A stretch of DNA of 62,756 bases from Paramagnetospirillum caucaseum (GTDB lineage: Bacteria; Pseudomonadota; Alphaproteobacteria; Rhodospirillales; Magnetospirillaceae): positions 1 through 62,756 of the forward strand of contig NZ_AONQ01000025.1 of NCBI RefSeq assembly GCF_000342045.1. Reading direction: 5' to 3'. The notes under the pieces are model-generated. The model did no database searches. It saw only the letters and a program-made list of their open reading frames with translations, and had not been told where the DNA came from. Of this stretch, positions 36,864-49,519 are shown piece by piece; the stretch's first letter is position 1; each line of letters starts with the position of its first letter. A program made the translations under genes and the position numbers.

Positions 36864-39848
36864 ATGGCCACCAAATCCGTCTCCATCCGCCTGTCCCTGC
36901 AGGACGGCGAAACCGTTCGGCGTAGCCTGATCCAACTGGGTAACGACGGCCAGAAGGCGCTGGCCCGGATCGAGACGGCGGCGCAACCGGCGTCGAAGTC
37001 ATTGCTAGCCATGAATGCCGTCAGCCAGGATATCCAGGGCGGCATGGCGGGGTTCGCCTCGCGCCTCGGCCCCATCGGCTCGGTGATGATGGCGCTGGGC
37101 CCGGCCGGGCTGGCGGCGGGCGCGGCCATCGGCTTCTTCGGCAAGGCCATGGTCGAGTCCACCATCAAGGTAGAAAGCCTGGAGGCCCGGCTCAAGGGTT
37201 TGGTCGGCGCCGCCGCCTTGACCGAAACCACCTCGTATCTCTATGCCCAAGCCCAGAAGACCGGCACGGCGCTGGAGACGGTGGTCGGGGCCTATTCCCG
37301 GTTGGCGGCGTTGCAGAAGGCCGGGATCATCACCACCGGCGAGAGCCGCGCCCTGCTGGAGGGCTTCCAGTCCACCGCCATTGCCCTGGGCGCCTCGTCC
37401 GAACAGTTGGAGCAATCGCTGTTCGGTCTGGCCCAGGGGCTGTCGTCGGGGACACTGCGGGCCGAGGAACTCAACCAGATCGTCGAGCCCATGCCGGGGC
37501 TGTTGCAGGCCCTGGACCGCGCCGCCGCTCTGCCCTCGGGCGGGTTCCGCCAGATGGTCACCCAGGGCAAGGTCACGGCGGATTTCTTCCGCGACACCTT
37601 GATCAAGGCGCTGCGGGGCTTTGACGAGGCGGCCAAGGAAAGCGCCGACACCGCCGAGCGCTCCTTCACCCGCATGGCCAATGCCTGGCAGGGCTTCACC
37701 AACGCCCCCTGGCTGCGCAAGGTTCTGTCGGGCGGCGCCAATGCCGGGGCGGCGACGCTGGAATCGCTGACGCCGGGCGAATCCACCGTCAAGTCGCGGC
37801 TGGCCGATCTGGATCGGCGCATCGCCGCCCTGGGGGGCGAGCAGGCGCTCGACAAGCCGCTGCCCGCCGGCACCCATTCGGTGGTGGTGCAGGCGGTCAG
37901 GGAGGAGAACGAGGAACTGCGCCGCCTGCTGGCCGAGCGCCAGGATGTCGCCGCTGATCTCGACGAGATCACCCGCAAGCGGGCGGGCATGGAAGCCCAT
38001 GCCAAGATGGAGCGCGACCGGGTCCGGGCCGAGCAGCGCGAGCCCAGCTATCTGGAGAAGCTGACCGACCTCAAATTCGAGGTGGAATGGCAGGAGAGGC
38101 TCAACACGGCCCGCGCCGCCGGTAACGCCGAGTTCTCCCGCACCAAGGCCCAATACGAGGCCGCCAAGGGCTTTCGCCAGATCGAGAAGGAGCTGTTCCA
38201 GCAAGGTGGCGTCTATCGCACCCAGCCCAAGGAACAGGAGATCAAGGATCTGCTGGCCCGCGAGGCCGAAGCCAAGGGGGCGGGAGAGATGTCCGCCCAG
38301 GCCCAGGCCGAGGTGCTGGGCTTAAACCTCCAGGCCCGTGGCCAGGAACGTCTGGCTGAAGCCGCCCGCACCGGCGGACAGGCCCAGATCGACGCGGCCA
38401 GAGCCGCCAAGGTGCTGGAGTTCGCCTTCAAGAATAACGGCGCGGCGGTGGCCGAATACGACCGGGCGCTGCGCCGCATCGACGCCGCCAAGCTGCTGGA
38501 ACAGACCAACGGCCTGATCCGCACCATGGGGCAGGAAGCCGCCGCCAATGACCGCCTCGCCGATGCGGCCAAAGGCTCGGTGGCCGACACCATTCTGGCG
38601 GAACGGACCAACTGGCTGGCCGAGCAGGCTTCCAAGGGGCTGACCGATGCCAATGGCGACTTGGCAGCCTCCTACGCCCAGGTTCAGAAATCGCGCGCCA
38701 ACAGCGAAGCGGCCCGCGCCGTCGCCGATCTGGAACGCGAGATCAATGCCCAGGTTCGTCTGGCCGAGGCGGTGCGCAGCAGTGAACGCACCAAAGTCCG
38801 CGACGTCACCATCGACAATGATGTCGCCAAATTCGCCCGCGGCCACAAGCTGGCCGAGGATGATCCCAAGGTGGATGAGTACCGGGCGGCCCGCTCGCGG
38901 CAATACGCCGAAGCGGTCAAGGACGAGGCCCGCCAAACCACGCTGGCCTATGACGCCACGCAGCGGTTTGCCGAGGAACTGGCCAAGCTCAACGAGCAGC
39001 GGGCCAGCGGCGCTTTGTCGGAAGAGGCCTATACCCGCCGTTATCGGGAATTGGAGCAGGACAAACTGGCCGCCAGCCGCGATTGGCAGGACGGCGCCAT
39101 CCGGGCGGTGCGGGCCTATGCCGACGAAGCCAGCAACGCGGCGGCTTCAGCAGAGCGGGCCATGTCGGGGGCCTTGCGGGCCAGCGAGGATGCCTTCGTC
39201 AAATGGGCCATGACCGGCAAGCTGGCCGGGCAGGATCTATTCAACAGCCTGGCCGAGGAGGCCCTGCGCGCCGCCTGGCGCATGTCGGTGGTGGCGCCCA
39301 TCTTCGGTGGAGCCGGCGGCGGCATCTTCGGTTCCATGATCAGCGGCCTCGGTGGTTGGATCTCCGGTGGCAGCGGTGGCACCAGCAGCGGTTCCGTCCC
39401 GGTGCCGGACACCGGCGCTTTCGCCATCGCCCATACCGGCGGCTTGATCGGTCTCGACCGGCTGGAGACACGGTCGTTCGATCCGGCGGTGTTCATCGGC
39501 GCGCCTCGCTTCCATCGGGGCGGCCTAGTTCCCGGTGAGGTGCCGATCATCGCCCAGAAGGGTGAGGAGGTGCTGACGCGGGGCGATCCTCGTCATCGCT
39601 TCAACCTGCGCCCCCGCGACGATGCCCCGGTGATGGTCAGTGTGCCGGTCTCGGTCAATATCCAGACGCCCCAGGGCACCCAGGCACGCACTGCGCAGCG
39701 CCGCGATTCCGGCGGCGGTCTGACGCTCGACATCATCGTCGAGCAGATCACCGACGCCATGTCCGGCGACATCGTCCGCGGCCAGGGCATTGCTCCGGTG
39801 CTGGAGCGCCAGTACGGACTCAACCGCGCCAACGGGGCTTATCGATGA
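36864..39848 (+). CDS. Tail tape measure protein
   Basis: 994 residues. Hydrophobic segment SVMMALGPAGLAAGAAIGFF near residue 75, then long helical coiled-coil regions rich in Ala, Glu and Arg, and a C-terminal lambda-type part with FVKWAMTGKLAGQDLF and VVAPIFGGAGGGIFGSMI. It sets tail length and passes through the membrane on injection. It is the largest tail gene, in the expected place. Confidence 0.92.
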   Translation: MATKSVSIRLSLQDGETVRRSLIQLGNDGQKALARIETAAQPASKSLLAMNAVSQDIQGGMAGFASRLGPIGSVMMALGPAGLAAGAAIGFFGKAMVESTIKVESLEARLKGLVGAAALTETTSYLYAQAQKTGTALETVVGAYSRLAALQKAGIITTGESRALLEGFQSTAIALGASSEQLEQSLFGLAQGLSSGTLRAEELNQIVEPMPGLLQALDRAAALPSGGFRQMVTQGKVTADFFRDTLIKALRGFDEAAKESADTAERSFTRMANAWQGFTNAPWLRKVLSGGANAGAATLESLTPGESTVKSRLADLDRRIAALGGEQALDKPLPAGTHSVVVQAVREENEELRRLLAERQDVAADLDEITRKRAGMEAHAKMERDRVRAEQREPSYLEKLTDLKFEVEWQERLNTARAAGNAEFSRTKAQYEAAKGFRQIEKELFQQGGVYRTQPKEQEIKDLLAREAEAKGAGEMSAQAQAEVLGLNLQARGQERLAEAARTGGQAQIDAARAAKVLEFAFKNNGAAVAEYDRALRRIDAAKLLEQTNGLIRTMGQEAAANDRLADAAKGSVADTILAERTNWLAEQASKGLTDANGDLAASYAQVQKSRANSEAARAVADLEREINAQVRLAEAVRSSERTKVRDVTIDNDVAKFARGHKLAEDDPKVDEYRAARSRQYAEAVKDEARQTTLAYDATQRFAEELAKLNEQRASGALSEEAYTRRYRELEQDKLAASRDWQDGAIRAVRAYADEASNAAASAERAMSGALRASEDAFVKWAMTGKLAGQDLFNSLAEEALRAAWRMSVVAPIFGGAGGGIFGSMISGLGGWISGGSGGTSSGSVPVPDTGAFAIAHTGGLIGLDRLETRSFDPAVFIGAPRFHRGGLVPGEVPIIAQKGEEVLTRGDPRHRFNLRPRDDAPVMVSVPVSVNIQTPQGTQARTAQRRDSGGGLTLDIIVEQITDAMSGDIVRGQGIAPVLERQYGLNRANGAYR

Positions 39849-40321
39849 TCCGCTTTCCCGCCACCCTGCCCATGCCGCTGGCGGAGCCCTACGCGGTCAA
39901 GCCCGCCGACGGGGTGGTCCGCACCGATATGGAGCAGGGACCGGCCCGCCAGCGCCGCGAGTTCACCCAAGTTCCGACCAAAATTCCGGTGAAATGGCGC
40001 TTCACCGATGCCCAATACGCGGTGTTCGACGCCTGGTACCAGTGGAAGGGCAAGGCCGGGGCAGAGTGGTTCGTGATCCCGCTGCGCAGCGGTCTTGGCG
40101 TGATCGACCATGTCGCCCGCTTCACCAAACAGTACGAGGCGCCGCTGTCCTCGGGCGGTTTCTGGCTGGTGACGGTGGAACTGGAAGTCCGTGACCGCCC
40201 GGTCCTATCTGAGGCCGAACTCGACATCCTGCTGGATTCTTCTTGGACCGACCTGTCCGGCGCGGTCACCGGCCTCGATTCCCTCGCCAATATCATCCTG
40301 TCCGATCACATCGGAGCCTGA
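39845..40321 (+). CDS. Minor tail protein (gpM-like)
   Basis: 158 residues, start overlapping the tape measure stop (ATGA). FTDAQYAVFDAWYQWKGKAG and WFVIPLRSGLGVIDHVARFT are typical of the gpM/phage_min_tail-type beta-rich tail-tip proteins. The position next to the tape measure fits a distal tail role. Confidence 0.75.
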   Translation: MIRFPATLPMPLAEPYAVKPADGVVRTDMEQGPARQRREFTQVPTKIPVKWRFTDAQYAVFDAWYQWKGKAGAEWFVIPLRSGLGVIDHVARFTKQYEAPLSSGGFWLVTVELEVRDRPVLSEAELDILLDSSWTDLSGAVTGLDSLANIILSDHIGA

Positions 40322-40324
40322 TCC

Positions 40325-41368
40325 ATGACCATCAAGGACGACCTTCTCGCCGCCACCGCCAAGGCCGACGGGGCGGCGCAGATTCTGCACGACGTCGCCC
40401 ATGGCCCCGCCACGGGGGCAGGCAGCACCGTGGCCACCGGTACTGGCTCGGTCAAGACGGTGGCCAAGGCGATGGCCGATATGGAAGCCGACATCACCAG
40501 CCGGATCGGCTCCATCGATCAGGCGGTCACCGATACCGCCGCCGATGCCGAGGCGGCTGCCTTGTCCGCTGCCATTGCCCAGGCCAGCGAATTGGCTGCT
40601 GCCGCCTCGGCCAGCGCAGCCCAGGTGGCCAAGGTCACCTGGAAAGGACCCTGGTCCGCCGTCACCGCCTATGCCGTGCATGACGCGGTATCCTTAAGCG
40701 GCTCGTCCTATGTCGCCATTGCTCCCGGCACCAACCAGCCGCCGCCCGATGTGGCCTATTGGCAGGTTCTGGCCGCCAAGGGTCTCGACGGCATCGGAGC
40801 CGGCGACATGCTGGCAGCCCAGAATCTCGCCGATTTGCCCGACAAGGCGGCGGCCCGGAGCAATCTCGGCCTGGCGATCGGCACCCATGTTCAGGCCCAT
40901 GATGCTGAACTGGATGCCCTGGCCGGTCTGGTCAGCGCCGCCAACAAGCTGCCCTATTTCACCGGAGGGGGCAGCGCTGCCCTGGCGGACCTGACCGCCG
41001 CCGGCCGCGCCCTGCTCGACGATGTGGATGCTGCGGCTCAGCGTACCACATTGGGCCTGTCCGACGCGGCCACCACCACGGTGGCGACCATCCGGGCCGG
41101 GGTGGACGTCTCCAGCCGGGTGGCCAAGACCGGGGATACCATGACCGGGTCGTTGACGGCACCGGGCTTCACCACATCGGGAAGCTCCTCCACCGCTACC
41201 GGCTTCAAAATCGCCAGCGGCACCGACCTCGCCAATATCTTCGCCCGCCAGCTGTCGCTGGGCGGCAGCCTCAGCGGCAACCTGACCAACGGCGTGCTGA
41301 CGCTGTCGGGCGGCTATTGCTCCTACTGCTCGTACTGCACCTGCGCGTGCAGCGACTGCTCCTGCTGA
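40325..41368 (+). CDS. Tail-fibre-like protein with cysteine-rich C-terminal tail
   Basis: 347 residues. A helical N-terminus (1-90) is followed by a carbohydrate-binding-like stretch ([19 protein letters not shown] and [18 protein letters not shown]), fibre repeats ([19 protein letters not shown]) and a Ser/Thr/Gly-rich shaft. The last 19 residues, [19 protein letters not shown], hold seven cysteines (332, 335, 338, 340, 342, 345, 347), and no cysteine occurs earlier in the protein. It starts 3 bases after the gpM-like gene and is followed by an unknown protein and two radical SAM/SPASM enzymes. I infer that the tail is a precursor-like substrate of those enzymes. Confidence 0.85.
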
Positions 41369-41382
41369 ACCGGGGAATCGCC

Positions 41383-42180
41383 ATGTCCATCAGCTATACG
41401 GTCACCGGCAAGGTCGGCGTCGGCTTTGCCGTCAGCGTCTCCGCCTCGGGATTTACGAGCCGGGTCTATTCGGAGGATTCCTATCATTTCGGCTCCCCAG
41501 GAACGGTGGCGCCGGTTGACGGAGATACTCTTCACCCTGATCTGGCCGGGAAAAGCATATTTGTTGGTCCCGAGATACCATTCGACTGGGACTGCTTCCA
41601 GACGTTGACCGAGGTTTCGGATCGCGCGTGCATCGTGTTCCCCCTCCATTATCGGGGTCAGGTCGAAGCGCCATACAACCGTGATCTCGACACCTACCTG
41701 TCGAAGCGGTCTGGGGCCGACGAGTTCATCAAAAACAGGGTTCATACTGCATTTCACCTCTACGTGCCCGAGAAGGGATGCAGCTTCACCGACTGCGCCC
41801 TGCATGCCTTCATCGGCTCGGACTATCCCCTGATCACCAACGTGGAGATGGTGGCCAGAACCGCAGACGAGATCAGGGCTTCGGCGATGCCGGGATTGAA
41901 GCTGTCCGGCCCGTCCGGGATCAGCCCGGAAGCGTATGCCCTTATCCAGGTGGTGGCGACCAATGCGGATGGCAGCATTCGGGACACCGTGTCCAGCACG
42001 GTATTCCTGGAAGAGGTCAACGGCTATCTGCCCAAGCGGCGGGTTGACCTGGTCAACGGCGTCGGACAGTTCCGAGTCGGCGCCCTCGGCCTGGTCAGTG
42101 GCGATACCGTGCGGGTCAAGGCCGGGTTTCGCTTCTACACCGGCCTGGCCGACATCACCCTTCCGGTCGGGGAGGTGTGA
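41383..42180 (+). CDS. Unknown protein between the Cys-tailed fibre and the radical SAM genes
   Basis: 265 residues from the ATG at 41383 (GGGGAAT upstream). N-terminal part beta-rich with aromatic residues, a middle stretch with CFQ, RACIVF and KGCSFTDCALH, and a C-terminal Ig-like segment (QVVATNADGSIRDTVSSTVF, then VSGDTVRVKAGFRFYTG). No family recognised. It could be a fibre tip or receptor-binding partner, a chaperone or a scaffold for modification. The stop overlaps the start of the first radical SAM gene. Confidence 0.75.
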   Translation: MSISYTVTGKVGVGFAVSVSASGFTSRVYSEDSYHFGSPGTVAPVDGDTLHPDLAGKSIFVGPEIPFDWDCFQTLTEVSDRACIVFPLHYRGQVEAPYNRDLDTYLSKRSGADEFIKNRVHTAFHLYVPEKGCSFTDCALHAFIGSDYPLITNVEMVARTADEIRASAMPGLKLSGPSGISPEAYALIQVVATNADGSIRDTVSSTVFLEEVNGYLPKRRVDLVNGVGQFRVGALGLVSGDTVRVKAGFRFYTGLADITLPVGEV

Positions 42181-43475
42181 TGTTCACCCTGATCATGCGC
42201 CGACCGGACGGCTCCACCTTCCGGCTCGTCCTGGACATCCGCACCAGCCGCCTCACCGACGAGGCCGGGCGGCTGATCGACATCTCGCCCCTGGGCGTGG
42301 TTTACGACAATGAGGGGGAGACGCTGCGCGACGCTCCCGGTACCACCAGGGAGCGGGCCGAACCGAAATCCAGGTCCGTCAAAGTGCTGCGCATCCAGCT
42401 TGGGCTGGCCTGCAATTTCTCCTGCGCCTATTGCGTCCAGGACCGGGCACGACCAGCCCATGACGAGAAACCCTCCGACGTGGCGGCGTTCATCGCCGGG
42501 CTTGATGCTTGGATATCCGGTGCGCCGGCCGTGGTCGAACTGTGGGGCGGGGAGCCTTTGCTCTACTGGCACAAGCTCAAGCCCCTGGTGGAAGGACTGC
42601 GCCACCGTTGGCCGGAGGTCAAGCTTCGGCTGACCACCAACGGCTCGCTGCTGGACATGGACAAGGTGGATTGGCTGGTAAGCCTCGGGGACGTCTCGGT
42701 GACGGTCTCCCATGACGGCCCCGGACAGCATCTGCGGGGGAAAGACCCGCTGGACACCCTCGAGACGCTGGAGGCCATCCGCTCCCTGTTCGCCCGGCTC
42801 GGCACCTTCGCCAAGTTCCATGCGGTGATGTCGCTGCCCCATCACAGCCCCATCGCCCTCCTGCACTACTTCTTCGACCGGCTGGGCACCACCGACATCC
42901 AGGTCTCCAGCAGCGGGCTCAAATACCCGCCCACGAAGGATTCCGGGCTGCATCTGGTGCCCGGCAATCCTGATGAATACACGGCGATGCGCCACGACTT
43001 GGCCAGGGAGTTCCGCACCCCTTACGTCTTCGCCAACGCCATCGTGGCAGCGCCGCTCCGCCATCTGCTCTACCAGTTCGCCAAATCGGTTCCCGCCCGC
43101 GCCCGTGGCCAGGGCTGCAACATGGACAACCCCGAGCATCTGGCGGTGACGCTCAGCGGCGATGTCATCGTCTGCCACAACACCAGCCCGGCCACCCACA
43201 AGATCGGCAGTGTCCATGATTTCGACGCCATTCGGCTGGGCCATAGCACCTCGTGGCACCACCGGCCGGAATGCAGTTCCTGCCCGGCGCTGCTGAGCTG
43301 CGGCGGGGCCTGCATGATGATGGAGGGCCGGGAGCGCGTGCTGTCCTGCGACAACAACTTCTCCCATGGCCTGGTCTATCTGGCGACGCTGCTCTACGCC
43401 CTGACCGGGGCCAAACTGCTGCGGATCGAAGGCCAGCGCATCCGCCATCTGGGTATCACCAGCTTCGATTTCTGA
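42180..43475 (+). CDS. Radical SAM/SPASM enzyme 1
   Basis: 431 residues. CNFSCAYC (Cys78, 82, 85) is the CX3CX2C cluster site, with GGEPLL following. The C-terminal SPASM region has GDVIVC (GX4C), CSSCPALLSCGGAC (CX2CX5CX3C) and a last cysteine, so two auxiliary Fe-S clusters are expected. This is the plan of peptide-modifying enzymes that make thioether or C-C links in RiPPs. A 60-residue N-terminal extension (RRPDGSTFRLVLDI) precedes the barrel. GGGGAGG lies before the ATG at 42180; a GTG at 42177 is an alternative. Confidence 0.92.
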   Translation: MFTLIMRRPDGSTFRLVLDIRTSRLTDEAGRLIDISPLGVVYDNEGETLRDAPGTTRERAEPKSRSVKVLRIQLGLACNFSCAYCVQDRARPAHDEKPSDVAAFIAGLDAWISGAPAVVELWGGEPLLYWHKLKPLVEGLRHRWPEVKLRLTTNGSLLDMDKVDWLVSLGDVSVTVSHDGPGQHLRGKDPLDTLETLEAIRSLFARLGTFAKFHAVMSLPHHSPIALLHYFFDRLGTTDIQVSSSGLKYPPTKDSGLHLVPGNPDEYTAMRHDLAREFRTPYVFANAIVAAPLRHLLYQFAKSVPARARGQGCNMDNPEHLAVTLSGDVIVCHNTSPATHKIGSVHDFDAIRLGHSTSWHHRPECSSCPALLSCGGACMMMEGRERVLSCDNNFSHGLVYLATLLYALTGAKLLRIEGQRIRHLGITSFDF

Positions 43476-43487
43476 AGGGGAACGACC

Positions 43488-44723
43488 ATGCTTTTCCGCC
43501 TGCATCTGATGGGGCCGGACGGCGCGTCGAAGACGGCCATCTACGACACCACGACGTCGGGCCTGATTATCGACGGCCAGCCCTTCGCCGAGGTCGAGAA
43601 GGACTGCGCCACCCCACCGTCCGTTTTGGTCTCGCCATCGACGCCTGGATACAAGGGCGGCCCGTTCAAGCGCCTCAAGATCCAGATGGGTCTGGCCTGC
43701 AACATGGCCTGCTCCTACTGCCTCCAGGTGACTCATCGGGAGGAGAAGACCAGCACCCTCGATGCCGAGGTGTTCCTCGCGGGCCTCGACACTTGGTGGC
43801 GGCCGGACAGGGATGAAAACCTGCGCATCGAGATCTGGGGAGGCGAGCCGCTGCTGCATATGGCCAAGCTGCGGATTCTGGTGACCGGGCTACGAGCTCG
43901 CCACCCCAAGGCCAACATGTTGGTCATCACCAACGGCACCCTGTTGACCCTGGAGATCGCCCGGTGGGCGCGGGAGATGGGGCTGCATCTGGCCATCTCC
44001 CATGATGGGCCGGGCCAGAGATCCATGCGCGGCCTCGATCCGCTGGAAATCCCGGCGGCGCTGGAGGCCATCCGGTGGCTGGTGGCCGAGCATCCCCATC
44101 ACGTCAACTTCAACTGCGTCCTTACGCCGGGGAATCTCAGTCTTGGCCGCATCCGCCACCACCTGGAAAAGGCCCTGGGCGTGGAGGAGATCGCCCTCTC
44201 GACCGAGGGCCTAGTGCAGGTCGATGGCGGTCAGACCTCCCCCCTGTCGGATGTGGACCACGAGGCCATCCGCCTCTCCCTGCTGGACGAGATGATCAGC
44301 GGCGAGGGCTTGCGCAACATCACCATCGCCCAGAAGGTCCGGGATTTCCACCTGTCGCTGGCCAGTCGGCGACCGCTGTCCTCAGTGGGGCAGCGGTGCG
44401 GCATGGACCGGCATCACCAGATCGCGGTGGATTTGAAGGGCAACGTGCTCACCTGCCAGAACACCCCGGACCGGGAAATGCGGATCGGCCACGTCTCCGC
44501 CATGGACAATGTTCGTCTCGACACCGCGACGCATTTCAGTCACCGGCCCGGATGCATGGCCTGCCCGGTGGTCCATCTGTGCCAGGGGGCCTGCATGTAC
44601 GCAGAGGGCGACGACTGGGACGCCACCTGCCGCAACAGCTTCACCTTCCACGCGGCAATCATGTCGGGCGCCATGGTCCACCTGACCGGCATGGCGATCA
44701 CCGACATCGAGACTCTCCGGTAA
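43488..44723 (+). CDS. Radical SAM/SPASM enzyme 2 (paralogue)
   Basis: 411 residues, paralogue of enzyme 1: CNMACSYC (Cys71, 75, 78), then GGEPLLHM, and a SPASM domain with GNVLTC, CMACPVVHLCQGAC and a last cysteine. All cluster ligands are kept. The N-terminal extension is different in sequence but similar in plan (MGPDGASKTAIYDTTTSG). It starts 12 bases after enzyme 1, so both are made together; two paralogues suggest two kinds of link or two sets of residues. Substrate is inferred to be the fibre tail. Confidence 0.92.
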   Translation: MLFRLHLMGPDGASKTAIYDTTTSGLIIDGQPFAEVEKDCATPPSVLVSPSTPGYKGGPFKRLKIQMGLACNMACSYCLQVTHREEKTSTLDAEVFLAGLDTWWRPDRDENLRIEIWGGEPLLHMAKLRILVTGLRARHPKANMLVITNGTLLTLEIARWAREMGLHLAISHDGPGQRSMRGLDPLEIPAALEAIRWLVAEHPHHVNFNCVLTPGNLSLGRIRHHLEKALGVEEIALSTEGLVQVDGGQTSPLSDVDHEAIRLSLLDEMISGEGLRNITIAQKVRDFHLSLASRRPLSSVGQRCGMDRHHQIAVDLKGNVLTCQNTPDREMRIGHVSAMDNVRLDTATHFSHRPGCMACPVVHLCQGACMYAEGDDWDATCRNSFTFHAAIMSGAMVHLTGMAITDIETLR

Positions 44724-44725
44724 TC

Positions 44726-45352
44726 ATGCCCGATCCCGCTCTCGAAGAGGCGATCCGCGAGGCCTATGCCTCGTGCCCCACCAACGCCATTCCGCTCCAC
44801 ACCATGGAACTGCGCCATCCCGCCTTCGTCGATGACTTGGGCAACCCCACCGCTGTCCGGGTGGTTCGCAATTACGAAGACGAGGTCACTTGGCGCGAAC
44901 GCGGCGGCGCCGAGGTCGCAGCGGTGCTGGACGTCATGACCCCCGAGGCCCGCAGCCGGGTCGGGCTGGTGGCCCGCCTCGAGCCCGACGCCCCGGTCAA
45001 TGCCGGCCAGATGGTCCCCTTCATCGCGCTCGCCTTCGATTTCCAATTACCCGAGGTCAGTTCCGCCCCGGTGCCCGAACTCACCGTCACCATGGACAAT
45101 GTCGGCCGCGAGCTGATGGAGCCGCTCGAAGCCGCCGCCACCTCCCTGGTCCGTATCGAGGTCACCTACCGTCCCTATCTCGACATCGATCTCGACGGTC
45201 CCCAGATGGACCCGCCGCTGACCATGACCCTGGTCCACGTTAACTGCACCGCCACCCAGATCACCGCCCGCGCCCAGATGTCCCAGATCGGCAACAAGGC
45301 CTTCCCCTGGCGCACCTATACCCAGCGCTGCTTTCCGGGGCTGGGGGGATGA
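44726..45352 (+). CDS. DUF1833 phage tail protein
   Basis: 208 residues, start 2 bases after the radical SAM gene. VRVVRNYEDEVTWRERGGAE and FIALAFDFQLPEVSSAPVPE, then YLDIDLDGPQMDPPLTMTLV, match the DUF1833 tail proteins encoded between the tape measure and NlpC/P60 genes. It is probably part of the tail tip. After its stop the phage order is broken by the accessory LysR/GNAT/GntR region. Confidence 0.85.
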   Translation: MPDPALEEAIREAYASCPTNAIPLHTMELRHPAFVDDLGNPTAVRVVRNYEDEVTWRERGGAEVAAVLDVMTPEARSRVGLVARLEPDAPVNAGQMVPFIALAFDFQLPEVSSAPVPELTVTMDNVGRELMEPLEAAATSLVRIEVTYRPYLDIDLDGPQMDPPLTMTLVHVNCTATQITARAQMSQIGNKAFPWRTYTQRCFPGLGG

Positions 45353-45379
45353 AAGCTCACGAAAGGTGGTGTGGTGATC

Positions 45380-46285
45380 CTATTTTCGCGATGGCGATCC
45401 CGGTCCTTCGTCTCGGAACAGAGTATCGGAAAGGTGGCGTATCATGGTCCTGACCGTGGCGTCGTCCTTGACATCTTTGTGGCAGACCAGAAAGAAAGGC
45501 AACTCAGCTCGGACACCGAGATCGAGAGCCACCGCGTCGGGCTCCCGGTCCAGCAGCCCGACCGGCTGAAGCGACAGGCCGATTCCCATCCGTGTCACGT
45601 TCCCCAATACGATGGATGATCCGGTTCTGTAGGGCACCATGGGGTGTCGCTCCAGCATTTCCGCCCATGGCCGCATTCCCCCTTCCTTCCGGTAATGCAT
45701 GACATGGGCACAGACGGGGAAGTTGACGACGTCTTCAAGAGAGGTTGGCCGCCCCCAGTCGTCGATGAATGATCTGCTGCAGACCGGGACCAGCACCAGC
45801 GAGGATTTCTGAAGGACCACCACATCCGGATCGGTCGGGTAGGCGTAGACCACGGTAATGTCGGCTTCACGCCTCGTCAGATCGACGCTCTGGCCAGCAT
45901 CCAGAATCTGGACGTCAAGGGTCACATTGGGATGCTCCCGGTGAAATCTCCGGAGCTTCGGAGCCAGCCAATAACCTGCCATCCCATCGGTCATGGCCAG
46001 GCGTAGACGACCGGAAATGGCGCTGCTCCGCTCCATATCCAACGCCGCCGACGCCATCAATCGCTCCATTTGCTCCGCCAACCGATACAGACGGTTGCCA
46101 GCCTGGGTCAGAGTGAGTCCGACGCTGGTCCGGAAGAACAGTTTCGCCCCAACATCGGCTTCAAGATCACTCATTCTCTTGCCCAACGTCGGCTGGGTAA
46201 GCGTCAATGTTTTTGACGCTGCCCGCAGCGAACCGGCGCGCGCGACCCCGAGGAAAATATAGACAAGCTCCCAGTTTCTCAGCAT
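45380..46285 (-). CDS. LysR-family transcription regulator
   Basis: 301 residues from the ATG at 46285, which has GAGG six bases upstream; an ATG at 46297 is too close to its own purine stretch. The N-terminal HTH is GSLRAASKTLTLTQPTLGKR; the C-terminal part is the LysR effector domain (LDVQILDAGQSVDLTRREAD). It probably regulates the divergent GNAT gene. It is on the minus strand in the late operon, so it belongs to an inserted accessory set. Confidence 0.88.
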   Translation of the reverse strand: MLRNWELVYIFLGVARAGSLRAASKTLTLTQPTLGKRMSDLEADVGAKLFFRTSVGLTLTQAGNRLYRLAEQMERLMASAALDMERSSAISGRLRLAMTDGMAGYWLAPKLRRFHREHPNVTLDVQILDAGQSVDLTRREADITVVYAYPTDPDVVVLQKSSLVLVPVCSRSFIDDWGRPTSLEDVVNFPVCAHVMHYRKEGGMRPWAEMLERHPMVPYRTGSSIVLGNVTRMGIGLSLQPVGLLDREPDAVALDLGVRAELPFFLVCHKDVKDDATVRTMIRHLSDTLFRDEGPGSPSRK

Positions 46286-46598
46286 TGGACGCCTCATCTC
46301 CGTGATAAATCAGCTTATCACCATGCCACAGATTATGAATTACACCTCGTCGCTATTGATTGCATACGATCCGCCGCATGTTTTCACGAGGTGCGCCATG
46401 CAGTCCGAGACCAGAAAAAATAATCAAATTCAGGTAAAGATCGCTGGTGGTATTGAGGAGATGGTTCAAGCCATCGCCATCCGCTCGGCTGTTTACGTGG
46501 GGGAGCGGGGATGGTCGTTTAAGGAGGAATGGGACGGGAATGATTTCACTGCCACCCATCTGATCGCGACTGTGAATGGGGATCCCGCCGGAACCATG

Positions 46599-48040
46599 GA
46601 TCGCGTCCCAAGACGTGGTGTAACAGCGGTGTCGCCGTCTGATCCTCGGCCGGGTTGGCCGTGTTGATCAAGCTGCCGCGACGGGCGGCAGGCTCACCAG
46701 GGGATCATCGCTCAGGGGAGCGACGGTTTCCAGGGTCATGTAGCGGGATCGCTGCACGGCCCATTCGTCGTTCTGTTCAAGGAGGATGGCGCCGATGAGG
46801 CGGGTGATGGCGTCTTCGTTGGGGAAGATGCCGACCACCTCGGTGCGGCGCTTGATCTCGCCGTTGAGGCGCTCGATGGGATTGGTCGAGTGCAGCTTGG
46901 TGCGGTGCGCCTGCGGGAAGTCCATGTAGGCCAGGACATCCATCTCGGCATGGTCCATCAACTCGGCCAGCTTGTGCGCCCTGGGGCGAAGCTGATCGGC
47001 GACCTGGCGCCATTGGGCGTGGGCGGCGGCATTGGTTTCCTGGGCAAAGGCGGTGCCGATGAAGGCGGAGACCACCCGGCGGCCCTGCTTGCCGGCATGG
47101 GCCAGGACGTTGCGCATGAAGTGGACGCGGCAGCGCTGCCAGGTCGCATTAAAGACCTTGGAGACGGCGGCCTTGATGCCCTCGTGGGCGTCGGAGACCA
47201 CCAACTTGACGCCGCGCAGGCCGCGACGGGCCAGCTTGCGCAGGAAGTCCTTCCAGAAGATCTCGGCCTCCGAGGCGCCGATGGCCATGCCCAGCACCTC
47301 GCGCCGCCCGGCGGTGTTGGCGCCCACCGCGATGATCACCGCCACGCTGACGATACGCCCGTCCTGGCGCACCTTCACATAGGTGGCGTCCAGCCAGACA
47401 TAGGGCCAGTCGCCCTCGATGGGCCGTTCCAGGAAGGTGGTGATCTTGCCATCGATCTCGGCGCACAGGCGCGAGACCTGGCTCTTGGAGATGCCGCTCA
47501 TGCCCATGGCCTTGACCAGATCGTCCACCGAGCGGGTCGAGATGCCCTGGACGTAGGCCTCCTGGATGACGGCGGTCAAAGCCTTTTCCGCCATGCGGCG
47601 CGGCTCCAGGAAGCCGGGGAAGTAGCTGCCCTTCCGCAGCTTCGGGATGCGCAGTTCCACCGTCCCGGCCCGGGTCTCCCAGTCCCGCTCCCGGTAGCCG
47701 TTGCGCTGGGCCAGTCGGACGGTCGGGTTGCGCTCACCGTGTCCGGCGCCGGTCAGTCCCTCGACCTCAAGCGCCATCAGCCGCTCGGCAGCAAAGCCAA
47801 TCATCTCGCGCAGCAGGTCGGAATCAGCGCTCTTCTCCAGAAGCCCGCGAAGGGCCATCATCTCGTCGGTCATCGTCTTCATCCTTGGTTCGGTTGTCGG
47901 TGTCGCAACCAAACCCTACCGAAGATCGACGATGACCACCCCGAGATTGGGGCCGCCTGGGGACGACGTCTCCGGGCGCTACGCGCCCTACGCCATCATC
48001 CCCAGGCAAACGCTGCTACACCACTCGGCGGGACGTGACC
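46599..48040. mobile_element. IS256-family insertion sequence with 8-bp target duplication
   Basis: The element is 1442 bp. The target duplication GAACCATG is at 46591-46598 and 48041-48048. The ends are imperfect inverted repeats, about 22 of 30 bases identical (GATCGCGTCCC... against GGTCACGTCCC...). It carries one Mutator/IS256 transposase on the minus strand. The clean duplication and ends suggest a recent insertion. Confidence 0.93.
46668..47873 (-). CDS. IS256-family transposase
   Basis: 401 residues with the DDE triad: [24 protein letters not shown] and the glutamate in [33 protein letters not shown] and [17 protein letters not shown] are other family marks. The ATG at 47873 has AAGGA about 7 bases before it and matches the usual start (MTDEMM); earlier in-frame codons at 47882 and 47912 are alternatives. 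Appears intact. Confidence 0.92.
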
Positions 48041-48437
48041 GAACCATGCGGATTCGATACTTCGCTGATTTTGTGAAGATCGAGCGACTGGCCATTCTTC
48101 CCCATTACCGGAAAAGCCGGTATGGCGCGCGTGGTGTCGCCTGGGCCTTGGGTGAGTTCGCGCTGGATTTTTGCCGCCGCAAAGGGTTTACGCGATTCTA
48201 TGGTCACGCACTGGAGGATCTGGTTCCGTTCTGGAATAAGCTATCTGGTGGATTCCTGCTTCCCATGCCGGGTGAAGCCCCGTTCGAATGCTCCGGTAAG
48301 ATGGTGGTTCCCATGTTCGGAGAGACGGAGGCGAAATCCGACGCGATCACTCACGACAGTGGCCATTACGTCATCGTTCGGCCCGAAGGGAACTGGGATA
48401 GCCCCGGATACTGGGAACTCAGCGAGGTTCCAGTGAA

Positions 48438-48713
48438 ATGCGCCTGACGGACGAAGTCATTTCCCGGCTGATCCGTGATATCGCGGCGGGCATCTTCCCT
48501 CCGGGCGAACGCCTGCGCGAAATCCCCATCGCTCAACGATATGGGGTTTCCCGCACTCCGGTTCGCGAAGCACTCGTGGCATTATCGGTTCGCGGAGTGG
48601 CGGAAATCCGCAATGGCCGCGGCTACATCGTCTCCAAGCCGCTTCCCGCGCCGATCATCCAGTGTCCTCACTGTGGCGGCACGATAGAGTCGAGGCCTGT
48701 TTTCAGCGCATAG
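48438..48713 (+). CDS. Short GntR-type HTH protein with zinc-ribbon-like end
   Basis: 91 residues. The GntR winged helix is GIFPPGERLREIPIAQRYGV followed by SRTPVREALVALSVRG. The effector domain normally following is absent; instead a short IIQCPHCGGTIES end with CPHC is present. It overlaps the GNAT stop by 10 bases. Either a naturally short regulator or a truncated gene. Likely regulates the accessory set. Confidence 0.75.
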   Translation: MRLTDEVISRLIRDIAAGIFPPGERLREIPIAQRYGVSRTPVREALVALSVRGVAEIRNGRGYIVSKPLPAPIIQCPHCGGTIESRPVFSA

Positions 48714-49114
48714 CCGCCCATCGCACCCAGGTGGCCGACCATCTGGTGCGTCAAGATAGTCTGCGGTTTTCTCGCGCCTTCTATCCATCGCGCCGAGTTG
48801 GCTTTTTCATATTTCTTCCCCGCTTTCAGCCCCCCGACGCCCCAACCGAAGATTCGCGGTCTGTCGTCCATGCCCGCTTGTGGGCTGCGGTTATTTTTGC
48901 GTGACCGCCTTCGGCGTCGTCGCCGCCTTGTAGGCACGAGCCCCCCCCCATTCCTTCTGAAAATCAAATGAGGCCTGGAGCATCGAACTTCGAGGCACAG
49001 TCTCTCGTCTTTTCACCAGCCAAGTCTCCACCGGAGACTTGGCTGCCTTCGGCACCGGTTCAAAGCCGTGCCCGGTTTGGGCGGGAGCCCAACCGCGAAG
49101 CGGAGCATTCCACC
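48714..49114. other. 401-base gap without a recognisable gene
   Basis: No convincing coding sequence is seen. An arginine-rich frame on the minus strand lacks any start signal or motif. The right part has a perfect 12-base hairpin (49018-49044) and a second GGTT-TGGGC/GCCCA-ACC hairpin (about 49076-49095). It is probably the right junction of the accessory insertion. Confidence 0.5.
49018..49044. repeat. Perfect 12-bp hairpin before the NlpC/P60 gene
   Basis: AGCCAAGTCTCC and GGAGACTTGGCT are exact inverted copies with a 3-base loop. There is no T-run on either side. It could be an RNA processing signal, a terminator remnant or an end of the accessory insertion. Confidence 0.6.
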
Positions 49115-49519
49115 ATGCACTGGGCCACGCCCTATATCGGCCAGCCGTGGTCGAAGCACGGCCAGGGGCCGGAAGCTTGGAACTGCTGGAGCTTCTTCCG
49201 CCATGTCCAGCAGGCCCATTTTGAGGTCGAGACCCCAATGGTGCCCTATGCCGACGATCTGCTGGTGCTGGCGCGGCTGTTTCGCGATCACCAGGAGCGC
49301 GGGCACTGGCAGCCGGTGACCGCGTATCGAGACGGTGACGGGGTGATGATGCGCACCGCCCGCTACCCCATCCATGTGGGGGTGTGGCTGGAGGTGGACG
49401 GCGGCAGGGTGCTGCACTGCGCCGCCGGATCGGGGGTGGTGTGCCAATCCCGGCGCGATCTGGCAGCCAATGGCTGGCGGATCGACGGGGTTTACCGCCA
49501 TCGGGGAGCGACATCATGA
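49115..49519 (+). CDS. NlpC/P60-type tail assembly protein (gpK-like)
   Basis: 134 residues. The cysteine in GPEAWNCWSFFRHVQ and the histidine in RYPIHVGVWLEVDG form the NlpC/P60 active site, a peptidoglycan or tail-maturation peptidase encoded beside gpJ in lambda-like phages. GGAG precedes the ATG at 49115. An in-frame upstream extension into the hairpin region is unsupported. Its stop overlaps the gpJ start. Confidence 0.88.
   Translation: MHWATPYIGQPWSKHGQGPEAWNCWSFFRHVQQAHFEVETPMVPYADDLLVLARLFRDHQERGHWQPVTAYRDGDGVMMRTARYPIHVGVWLEVDGGRVLHCAAGSGVVCQSRRDLAANGWRIDGVYRHRGATS

What the first reader, a model, noticed from the sequence alone, without database searches (positions are those of the whole stretch)
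40325..44723. Prophage tail fibre with a cysteine-rich tail next to two radical SAM/SPASM enzymes: candidate RiPP-like modification of a virion protein
Seen: a tail-fibre-like gene whose only cysteines are seven in its last 16 residues, followed with tight spacing by an unknown protein gene and two complete radical SAM/SPASM genes, all inside the tail operon between gpM-like and DUF1833 genes. Known: SPASM radical SAM enzymes install sulfur-to-carbon or C-C links in ribosomal peptides (sactipeptides, ranthipeptides) on Cys-rich cores. Inference: the phage cross-links the fibre tip after translation, giving a rigid or metal-binding receptor-contact tip. I do not know a report of such a system.
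Basis: partly seen in the sequence, partly recalled or inferred. Interest (0 to 1): 0.95.

Follow-up and report, generated by a model that had tools for sequence, protein, structure and literature searches.

The report
Radical-SAM-linked cysteine tips on phage fibres
Many tailed phages put a short cysteine-rich tag (typically Asn-Cys repeats) on the very end of a tail fibre and carry, close beside it, a radical enzyme of the kind that cross-links peptides, which suggests that these viruses chemically remodel the tip with which they touch their host.

The parts
40325..41368 (+). Tail fibre, 347 aa, carrying the cysteine tag at its C-terminus
   Evidence: (13 tail/tail-fibre PHROGs, best 4e-11); its N-terminal ~70 aa module was found in 39 IMG/VR loci, the window's own phage included
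41318..41365 (+). Cys tag [16 protein letters not shown] (residues 332-347), proposed substrate
   Evidence: identical in Magnetospirillum sp. SS-4 (L367); same place as the NCNCNC-type tags of relatives
41383..42180 (+). Partner protein, 265 aa: N-terminal domain without a match found in the PDB look plus C-terminal Ig-like (invasin-type) domain
42177..43475 (+). Radical SAM/SPASM enzyme A, 432 aa
   Evidence: PF04055 E 1.9e-10; phrog_1802 E 1.1e-68; SPASM TIGR04085 31.7 bits over cutoff 27; all cluster Cys present
43488..44723 (+). Radical SAM/SPASM enzyme B, 411 aa
44726..45352 (+). DUF1833 minor tail protein: downstream border of the cassette, not part of it
   Evidence: PF08875 E 1.3e-32, phrog_396
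39845..40321 (+). Virion structural protein (phrog_384): upstream border of the cassette
   Evidence: phrog_384 E 1.1e-45

Best explanation
A two- or three-part, exchangeable phage tail-tip cassette. (1) A tail fibre or related tip protein ends in a short run of mostly alternating cysteines. (2) A co-encoded radical SAM/SPASM enzyme, sometimes two, modifies that run after translation, most likely by forming thioether links between Cys sulfur and carbons of the interleaved residues (mostly Asn, Ala, Asp; Tyr, Ser and others in the window), folding a floppy 8-30 residue tail into a compact, protease-resistant knob at the distal end of the fibre. (3) Where present, the partner protein assists maturation or caps the tip. 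In phages such as Achromobacter JWF the tag lies directly before a Hint domain, so self-cleavage would expose it as the mature C-terminus. Shown: genes, motifs, mutual co-occurrence, predicted folds, purifying selection. Inferred: that the tag is the substrate (about 0.9), that the product is a cross-link (about 0.75), that it is a thioether (about 0.55), that it serves receptor contact or tip stability (about 0.6).
For: Tag to enzyme: of 120 NCNCNCxC stretches, 69 are at the C-terminus or before a Hint in a frame with at least 50 open codons upstream; 54 of the 69 have the enzyme and the 15 without all have under 3 kb of downstream DNA; with at least 3 kb it is 44 of 44 (37 of 37 distinct), same strand, 44-2917 bp downstream; permuted motif CNNCCNxC 0 of 116 loci. 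Enzyme to tag: 55 of 63 dereplicated loci, opposite strand 3 of 63, random segments 1 of 370; with a neutral rule that asks only for three Cys in the last 12 residues, 51 of 63 against 12 of 63 and 50 of 545. Partner to enzyme: 22 of 22. Same fibre N-terminal module: tagged 10 of 10 with enzyme and partner, untagged 0 of 22. In tags of enzyme-found loci, 232 of 283 Cys-Cys gaps are one residue: N 128, A 43, D 31, R 16 of 232. Structure: the leading rows for rSAM B are SPASM enzymes that act on peptides or proteins (CteB, ChlB, anSME, TigE, SuiB; roles partly recalled); by sequence also TigE (8vpo), anSME and CteB. Tagged proteins hit tail PHROGs in 7 of 10 tested, and one is a T7-type fibre with collagen repeats.
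Against: No chemistry was observed. Co-occurrence cannot tell cross-linking from epimerisation, formylglycine-type oxidation or other changes. CxC repeats also bind metals without enzymes. The window's tag lacks the Asn typical of the family. Five of 63 enzyme loci show no acceptable tag (L379, L381, L388, L391, L393), and 1 of 22 partner loci (L451) has none. Three regions with strong phrog_1802 matches (E 9.5e-45, 5.7e-45, 3.8e-55) but weaker matches to my enzyme profile have no tag (L474, L477, L478), so the link holds for a subfamily, not for all of phrog_1802. No leader or RRE was recognised. The four searches share loci; phage relatedness is not corrected for; 16 of the 22 untagged fibres are 176-aa proteins of one kind, and five of the ten tagged ones lie on contigs used as search seeds. 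Only 3 of the 116 control stretches lie in comparable frames, so 0 of 116 is a base rate for phage DNA rather than for real Cys-rich ORFs.
Confidence: 0.72

Rival explanations
1. The enzyme modifies the tag but not by intrachain thioethers: it could epimerise residues, oxidise Cys or Ser to formylglycine, make C-C links, or join the three chains of the fibre trimer to each other.
Confidence: 0.2
2. The cysteine tag is a metal-binding or Fe-S tip, metallothionein-like; the radical SAM enzyme and partner help assemble it or act elsewhere.
For: CxC runs resemble metallothionein motifs (recalled). A separate set of small proteins with NCNCNCHC occurs without the enzyme in the fetched DNA.
Against: Each of the 44 tagged ORFs with at least 3 kb downstream has the enzyme, which a plain metal site would not need. 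The enzyme keeps its cluster cysteines (46-47 of 47).
Confidence: 0.12
3. The enzyme modifies something other than the tag, such as the partner protein or a host surface molecule, and the tag simply forms disulfides after release.
For: The partner protein is conserved and has four cysteines in the window.
Against: Some tag-plus-enzyme loci have no detectable partner: Achromobacter phages 2-1 and JWF (L004, L005), L041, L376, so the tag is the more constant companion. No Cys is among the invariant or nearly invariant columns of 46 partner sequences.
Confidence: 0.07
4. Neighbourhood by chance or hitch-hiking; no functional link.
For: None found.
Against: Controls 0 of 116, 1 of 370 and 0 of 22 against near-complete association, across different fibre types and hosts.
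Confidence: 0.01

Closest known systems
CteB / SCIFF-type thioether maturases (PDB 5WGG, 5WHY, titled as thioether bond formation in sactipeptide biosynthesis)
   Different: Below the NCBIfam SCIFF maturase cutoff (48.4 and 31 bits against 425); the proposed substrate is the C-terminus of a large virion protein with alternating CxC, not a ~45-aa peptide; no leader recognised
PapB family ranthipeptide maturases (NF047865)
   Same: Best NCBIfam hit of rSAM B (E 4.8e-22, residues 63-371)
   Different: 78.6 bits against a cutoff of 340; PapB makes Cys-to-Asp links in C-x3-D repeats (recalled), the tags here are mostly C-x-C
QhpD/PeaB, quinohemoprotein amine dehydrogenase maturase (TIGR03906)
   Same: A SPASM enzyme that cross-links a protein subunit rather than a natural-product peptide (recalled); second row of rSAM B in NCBIfam (E 1.7e-15)
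   Different: 56.6 bits against a cutoff of 453; cellular enzyme subunit, not a virion part
phrog_1802 radical SAM protein of Achromobacter phages JWF and 2-1
   Same: Both window enzymes match phrog_1802 (E ~1e-69); those phages carry NCNCDCNC tags before a Hint domain, two genes upstream of the enzyme
   Different: In the records the enzyme is named radical SAM domain-containing protein or anaerobic sulfatase-maturating enzyme, and the tagged protein a Hint family or hypothetical protein; one enzyme, no detectable partner homologue

Membership tests
Radical SAM superfamily | CxxxCxxC [4Fe-4S] motif in a radical SAM domain | tested here: met
   PF04055 above gathering score for A and B; CxxxCxxC in both and in 46 of 47 aligned sequences
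SPASM subfamily | Seven-Cys auxiliary cluster region | tested here: met
   TIGR04085 31.7 and 34 bits over cutoff 27; seven Cys invariant in 47 sequences
PapB ranthipeptide maturase (NF047865) | Score over curated cutoff 340 | tested here: not met
   50.1 and 78.6 bits
SCIFF maturase / CteB (TIGR03974) | Score over curated cutoff 425 | tested here: not met
   48.4 and 31 bits, although the fold is the nearest among the rows
RiPP biosynthesis | Gene-encoded substrate beside its maturase | tested here: met
   Adjacency of candidate substrate and candidate maturase; that they act on each other is inference
RiPP biosynthesis | Leader/core organisation with RRE-type recognition | tested here: inconclusive
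   No leader motif seen in the 60 aa before the tag with two simple patterns and by eye; no RRE row in Pfam or in the NCBIfam rows shown (best 25 of 43 and of 50)
RiPP biosynthesis | Covalent post-translational modification of the core | not testable with these tools
   needs mass spectrometry
Sactipeptide/ranthipeptide chemistry | Cys sulfur to alpha/beta/gamma carbon link | not testable with these tools
   needs MS/MS or NMR
Phage tail fibre | Homology to tail fibre families and position in tail operon | tested here: met
Hint autoprocessing variant (relatives only; the window has no Hint domain) | Hint domain beginning at the Cys that ends the tag | tested here: met
   L005 PF05203 47.5 bits over 32.1, starting at residue 308; L041, L083 and L089 score below the cutoffs of their Hint models

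The most novel reading that the evidence does not exclude
Tailed phages of many lineages carry a dedicated radical-enzyme maturation system for their own virion: a new class of gene-encoded, enzyme-cross-linked (NC)n tip on receptor-contacting fibres, exchangeable as a cassette and sometimes unmasked by Hint self-cleavage. To my knowledge it would be the first case of a virus using radical SAM chemistry to build a structural part.
Probability: 0.68. Interest if true: 0.95.

Novelty: new variant of a known kind. Interest (0 to 1): 0.9.

Why it matters
If true, phages make covalently locked peptide tips on their receptor-binding parts, a layer of virion chemistry that genome annotation and cryo-EM modelling can miss, since a short cross-linked tail may be unresolved. 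It gives a radical SAM subfamily with an easily recognised substrate code (CxC repeats), a tag of 8-20 residues that might be moved onto other proteins for in vivo cyclisation, and a testable question about adsorption: does the tip bind the receptor, resist proteases, or lock the trimer. It also suggests functions for members of phrog_1802 and for a partner family with no annotation found here.

Tried and rejected
Chance clustering of Cys: rejected (about 1e-10 for random placement; recurrence in relatives). Enzymes as host metabolic cargo: not favoured, because they sit beside tagged tail proteins. Family-level census with phrog_1802 over 99 related genomes: 49 of 99 matched at E <= 1e-20, but the same search rang in 10 of 14 control genomes including E. 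coli, so it also counts other radical SAM enzymes and I do not use it as a census; I looked for tags around only 11 of its places, and three of those with strong phrog_1802 scores had none (L474, L477, L478). Plasmid searches listed only matches under 60% identity, mostly PeaB-type maturases. In the phage records the only relatives above 30% identity over at least 80% of the query are Achromobacter 2-1 and JWF, the latter held as two records. A leader-like motif before the tag gave nothing consistent. Fold of the partner's N-terminal domain: the PDB second look is filled by residues 169-265 and PDB Foldseek gave low TM-scores; seven phage proteins without annotated function match the whole model in BFVD with query TM-scores of 0.64-0.81. 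I did not fold that domain alone. My first composition count (100 tags) mixed in loci fetched by the NCNCNCxC motif and some control loci, which inflates Asn; I replaced it, which uses only enzyme-found loci.

Papers. Ten searches: (term sets such as radical SAM + tail fiber, SPASM domain + phage, Hint domain + radical SAM + phage, ranthipeptide + phage, thioether + tail fiber), in open-licence PMC only, no bioRxiv. I saw listings and abstract starts, and the passages found in PMC9959647 (no 'radical', 'Hint' or 'cysteine' found in the text; phage Lumi is related to JWF), PMC10783043 (a radical SAM gene listed with queuosine and pterin genes in cluster K) and PMC7029224 (radical SAM cassettes in a pelagimyophage region; Cys tags not mentioned in the two passages). 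None of what I saw describes this system; subscription papers and preprints were not searchable.
Full report
What is in the window. The fibre (40325-41368, 347 aa) has seven Cys, all in residues 332-347. It is followed after 14 nt by a 265-aa gene (41383-42180), which overlaps rSAM A (42177-43475) by 4 nt; rSAM B (43488-44723) follows after 12 nt and DUF1833 (44726-45352) after 2 nt. Portal, head protease, major head protein, tail terminator and hub and a tape measure protein place it in the tail operon of a long-tailed prophage. Both enzymes match Radical_SAM, the SPASM model above its cutoff, and phrog_1802. In the NCBIfam rows shown (25 of 43 and 25 of 50) neither reaches the cutoff of a named maturase family: best are geopeptide maturase for A (54 of 400 bits) and PapB for B (78.6 of 340).

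Same cassette in the same genus. Magnetospirillum sp. SS-4 (L367, 92% identical over rSAM B) has the identical tag. The same genome has two further loci with other fibres, ending NCNFAPNCNYQPACNCNCCC (L469) and TTKNCNCNCMG (L470), each with partner and one enzyme. Of the 11 regions fetched, six contain a tag upstream of the enzyme (L468, L469, L470, L472, L473, L476). L475 is cut short by its contig. L474, L477 and L478 match phrog_1802 strongly (E 9.5e-45, 5.7e-45, 3.8e-55) but my enzyme profile less (4e-20, 1e-21, 8e-7) and have no tag and no partner: other members of a broad family.

Search from the enzyme. An alignment of six enzymes found 510 relatives (tblastn E <= 1e-3) in IMG/VR, of which the best 80 were returned. 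I gave the test 110 loci: L004, L005, L007-L009, L018, L024-L100 and L367-L393 (the best 27 of 79 loci), the window's own copies left out; all 110 have the enzyme. The script accepts a [N/D]CxC..C motif within 30 aa of the stop, or before a Hint-like start, in an ORF of at least 50 aa within 3.5 kb upstream on the same strand. 79 loci remained after dereplication and 63 had at least 2.5 kb upstream; 55 of 63 hit (49 C-terminal, 6 Hint). The opposite strand gave 3 of 63, and 370 random segments from 80 listed control loci (five each from those over 4 kb) gave 1. The eight misses: L007 has the window-type tag, which the motif excludes; L083 has a tag before a Hint variant that the regex missed; L390 ends AQCTQCQCDCNG; L388 is the fused copy; L391 has a 64-aa ORF ending SNCQCNCGRGSL further upstream, beside another radical SAM ORF, and L393 has NCNCLC inside an 83-aa ORF; L379 and L381 show nothing. 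With a neutral rule (at least three Cys in the last 12 residues, no Asn needed, Hint types not counted) it is 51 of 63, against 12 of 63 on the opposite strand and 50 of 545 control segments. Some hits are small ORFs of 61-100 aa whose status as genes rests on recurrence.

Search from the tag. Of the 120, 56 contain an enzyme hit (E <= 1e-8). In 69 the motif lies at the C-terminus or before a Hint in a frame with at least 50 open codons upstream; 54 of these have the enzyme on the same strand within 4 kb, and the other 15 all have less than 3 kb of DNA downstream. With at least 3 kb it is 44 of 44 (37 of 37 distinct), 44-2917 bp downstream, median 1332. The control gave 0 of 116, but only 3 of its stretches were in such frames, so it measures the base rate of the enzyme in phage DNA. 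Of the remaining 51 motif stretches, 48 are in shorter frames and 3 are internal, two of the 51 with an enzyme nearby; they include a different small Cys/His-rich protein without the enzyme, so the bare motif is not sufficient.

Search from the partner. A conserved piece of the partner family found 22 loci, several on contigs already seen. All 22 have an enzyme hit (in L451 only a 110-aa piece at the contig end); 18 show a tag by regex and two more (L457, L458) have the window-type tag. L455 begins 97 bp before the partner, and the same contig shows the tag at its very end (L169). L451 has no tag; its upstream ORFs do not look like tail genes. In one search, 87 of 165 fetched loci (overlapping contigs and truncated loci included) have a partner homologue; the Achromobacter phages have none detectable.

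Search from the fibre. The fibre's first ~70 residues were found in 39 loci. Of 38 complete ORFs, 32 have at least 3 kb downstream: 10 end in a Cys tag and all 10 have enzyme and partner; 22 have no tag and none has the enzyme. Nine of the ten have four or more Cys in the last 30 residues; L484, ending NCNCNCMG, has three and was put on the other side by the script's threshold, and I moved it after seeing it. Of the six with less room, L485 is tagged with partner and no enzyme in its 1.2 kb, and five have neither. Treated as independent, 10 of 10 against 0 of 22 is 1.6e-8; but five of the tagged contigs (L479, L481, L482, L489, L514) gave seeds of the search, and without them 5 of 5 against 0 of 22 is 1.2e-5; 16 of the 22 untagged are 176-aa proteins of one kind. 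The same attachment module thus carries either an ordinary tip or a tagged tip with its enzyme, which I read as an exchangeable cassette.

The tag. In 56 distinct tails from enzyme-found loci chosen without asking for Asn, 232 of 283 gaps between neighbouring Cys of the last run are a single residue: Asn 128, Ala 43, Asp 31, Arg 16, Gln 4, Tyr 4, others 6 (a few of these tails are probably wrong frames). L368 ends [22 protein letters not shown], joining the window's SYCSYC pattern to the usual NC pattern. Several loci carry two or three tagged ORFs in tandem (L465, L380, L042).

Hint variants. In Achromobacter phages JWF and 2-1 the run NCNCDCNC...SC is directly followed by FPAGTMVLMADG, a Hint domain start (PF05203 for JWF, 47.5 bits over a cutoff of 32.1, beginning at residue 308). 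L041, L048, L089 and L376, L083, L161 and L392, near a fragmented enzyme, look alike; L041, L083 and L089 were scanned and score below Pfam cutoffs. Hint domains cleave the bond before their first Cys (recalled), so the tag would become the C-terminus. This suggests, independently of the gene neighbourhood, that the tag has to be the free end of the protein.

Tagged proteins are tail parts. 7 of 10 tagged proteins from other loci match tail or tail-fibre PHROGs at E <= 1e-3; L095 has a T7 tail-fibre N-terminus, collagen repeats and a weak carbohydrate-binding module match. Fibre N-termini attach to the virion and C-termini point to the host (recalled), so the tag is at the contact end.

How it most likely works. 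Shown: a recurrent tag and enzyme association, often with the partner; complete catalytic motifs; purifying selection; predicted fold nearest to a thioether-forming maturase. Inferred: the enzyme abstracts hydrogen from residues between the Cys and closes sulfur-to-carbon links, producing a compact knob at the tip. The paired enzymes of the window (34% identical to each other) may act on different parts of its Y/S/T/A/D-spaced tag. Alternatives of chemistry, metal binding or a different substrate are scored above.

Known or new. Nothing seen in the ten open-access paper searches describes it. SPASM maturation of Cys-rich peptides is a known kind; doing it on a phage fibre tip, with this tag, partner and Hint variant, appears new. 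I file it as a new variant of a known kind because the chemistry has not been seen.

Noticed in passing
window 45346-49117: About 3.8 kb between DUF1833 and the NlpC/hub genes holds a LysR regulator (minus strand), a GntR-type HTH gene (48438-48713) and a Mutator-family transposase (46668-47912, PF00872) lying between two ORFs without Pfam hits; in L468 (the SS-4-like genome) the same place holds only about 0.64 kb without a blastn match. It looks like a cargo or insertion site inside the tail operon.
   Followed up: partly
L465 3239-4318: Three tandem ORFs of 113-119 aa, each ending SLTNCNCACDCL, upstream of one partner and one enzyme: looks like a set of alternative tagged tips.
   Followed up: no
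L138, L139, L140, L141, L146, L157, L172, L188: Small Cys/His-rich proteins with NCNCNCHC and further CxC pairs, and no radical SAM hit in the fetched DNA; apparently an unrelated, possibly metal-binding set in short viral contigs.
   Followed up: no
L050 6342-6998; also L053, L062: A ~215-aa ORF ending NQHPxxGxxPHVQVVANFRV lies between a 94-149 aa NCNCNCRC-tagged ORF and the enzyme; no Pfam hit for the L050 one. Possibly a further component in this group.
   Followed up: no
L145, L230: ORFs with long runs of CQxCQxCQ (e.g. CQTCQGCQSCQ) close to NCNCDC or DCNCNC tags.
   Followed up: no
L388 6084-7004: Partner gene fused to part of another tail gene by an apparent internal deletion in a Phaeospirillum MAG, with a single enzyme and DUF1833 left downstream: a decaying copy.
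   Followed up: partly
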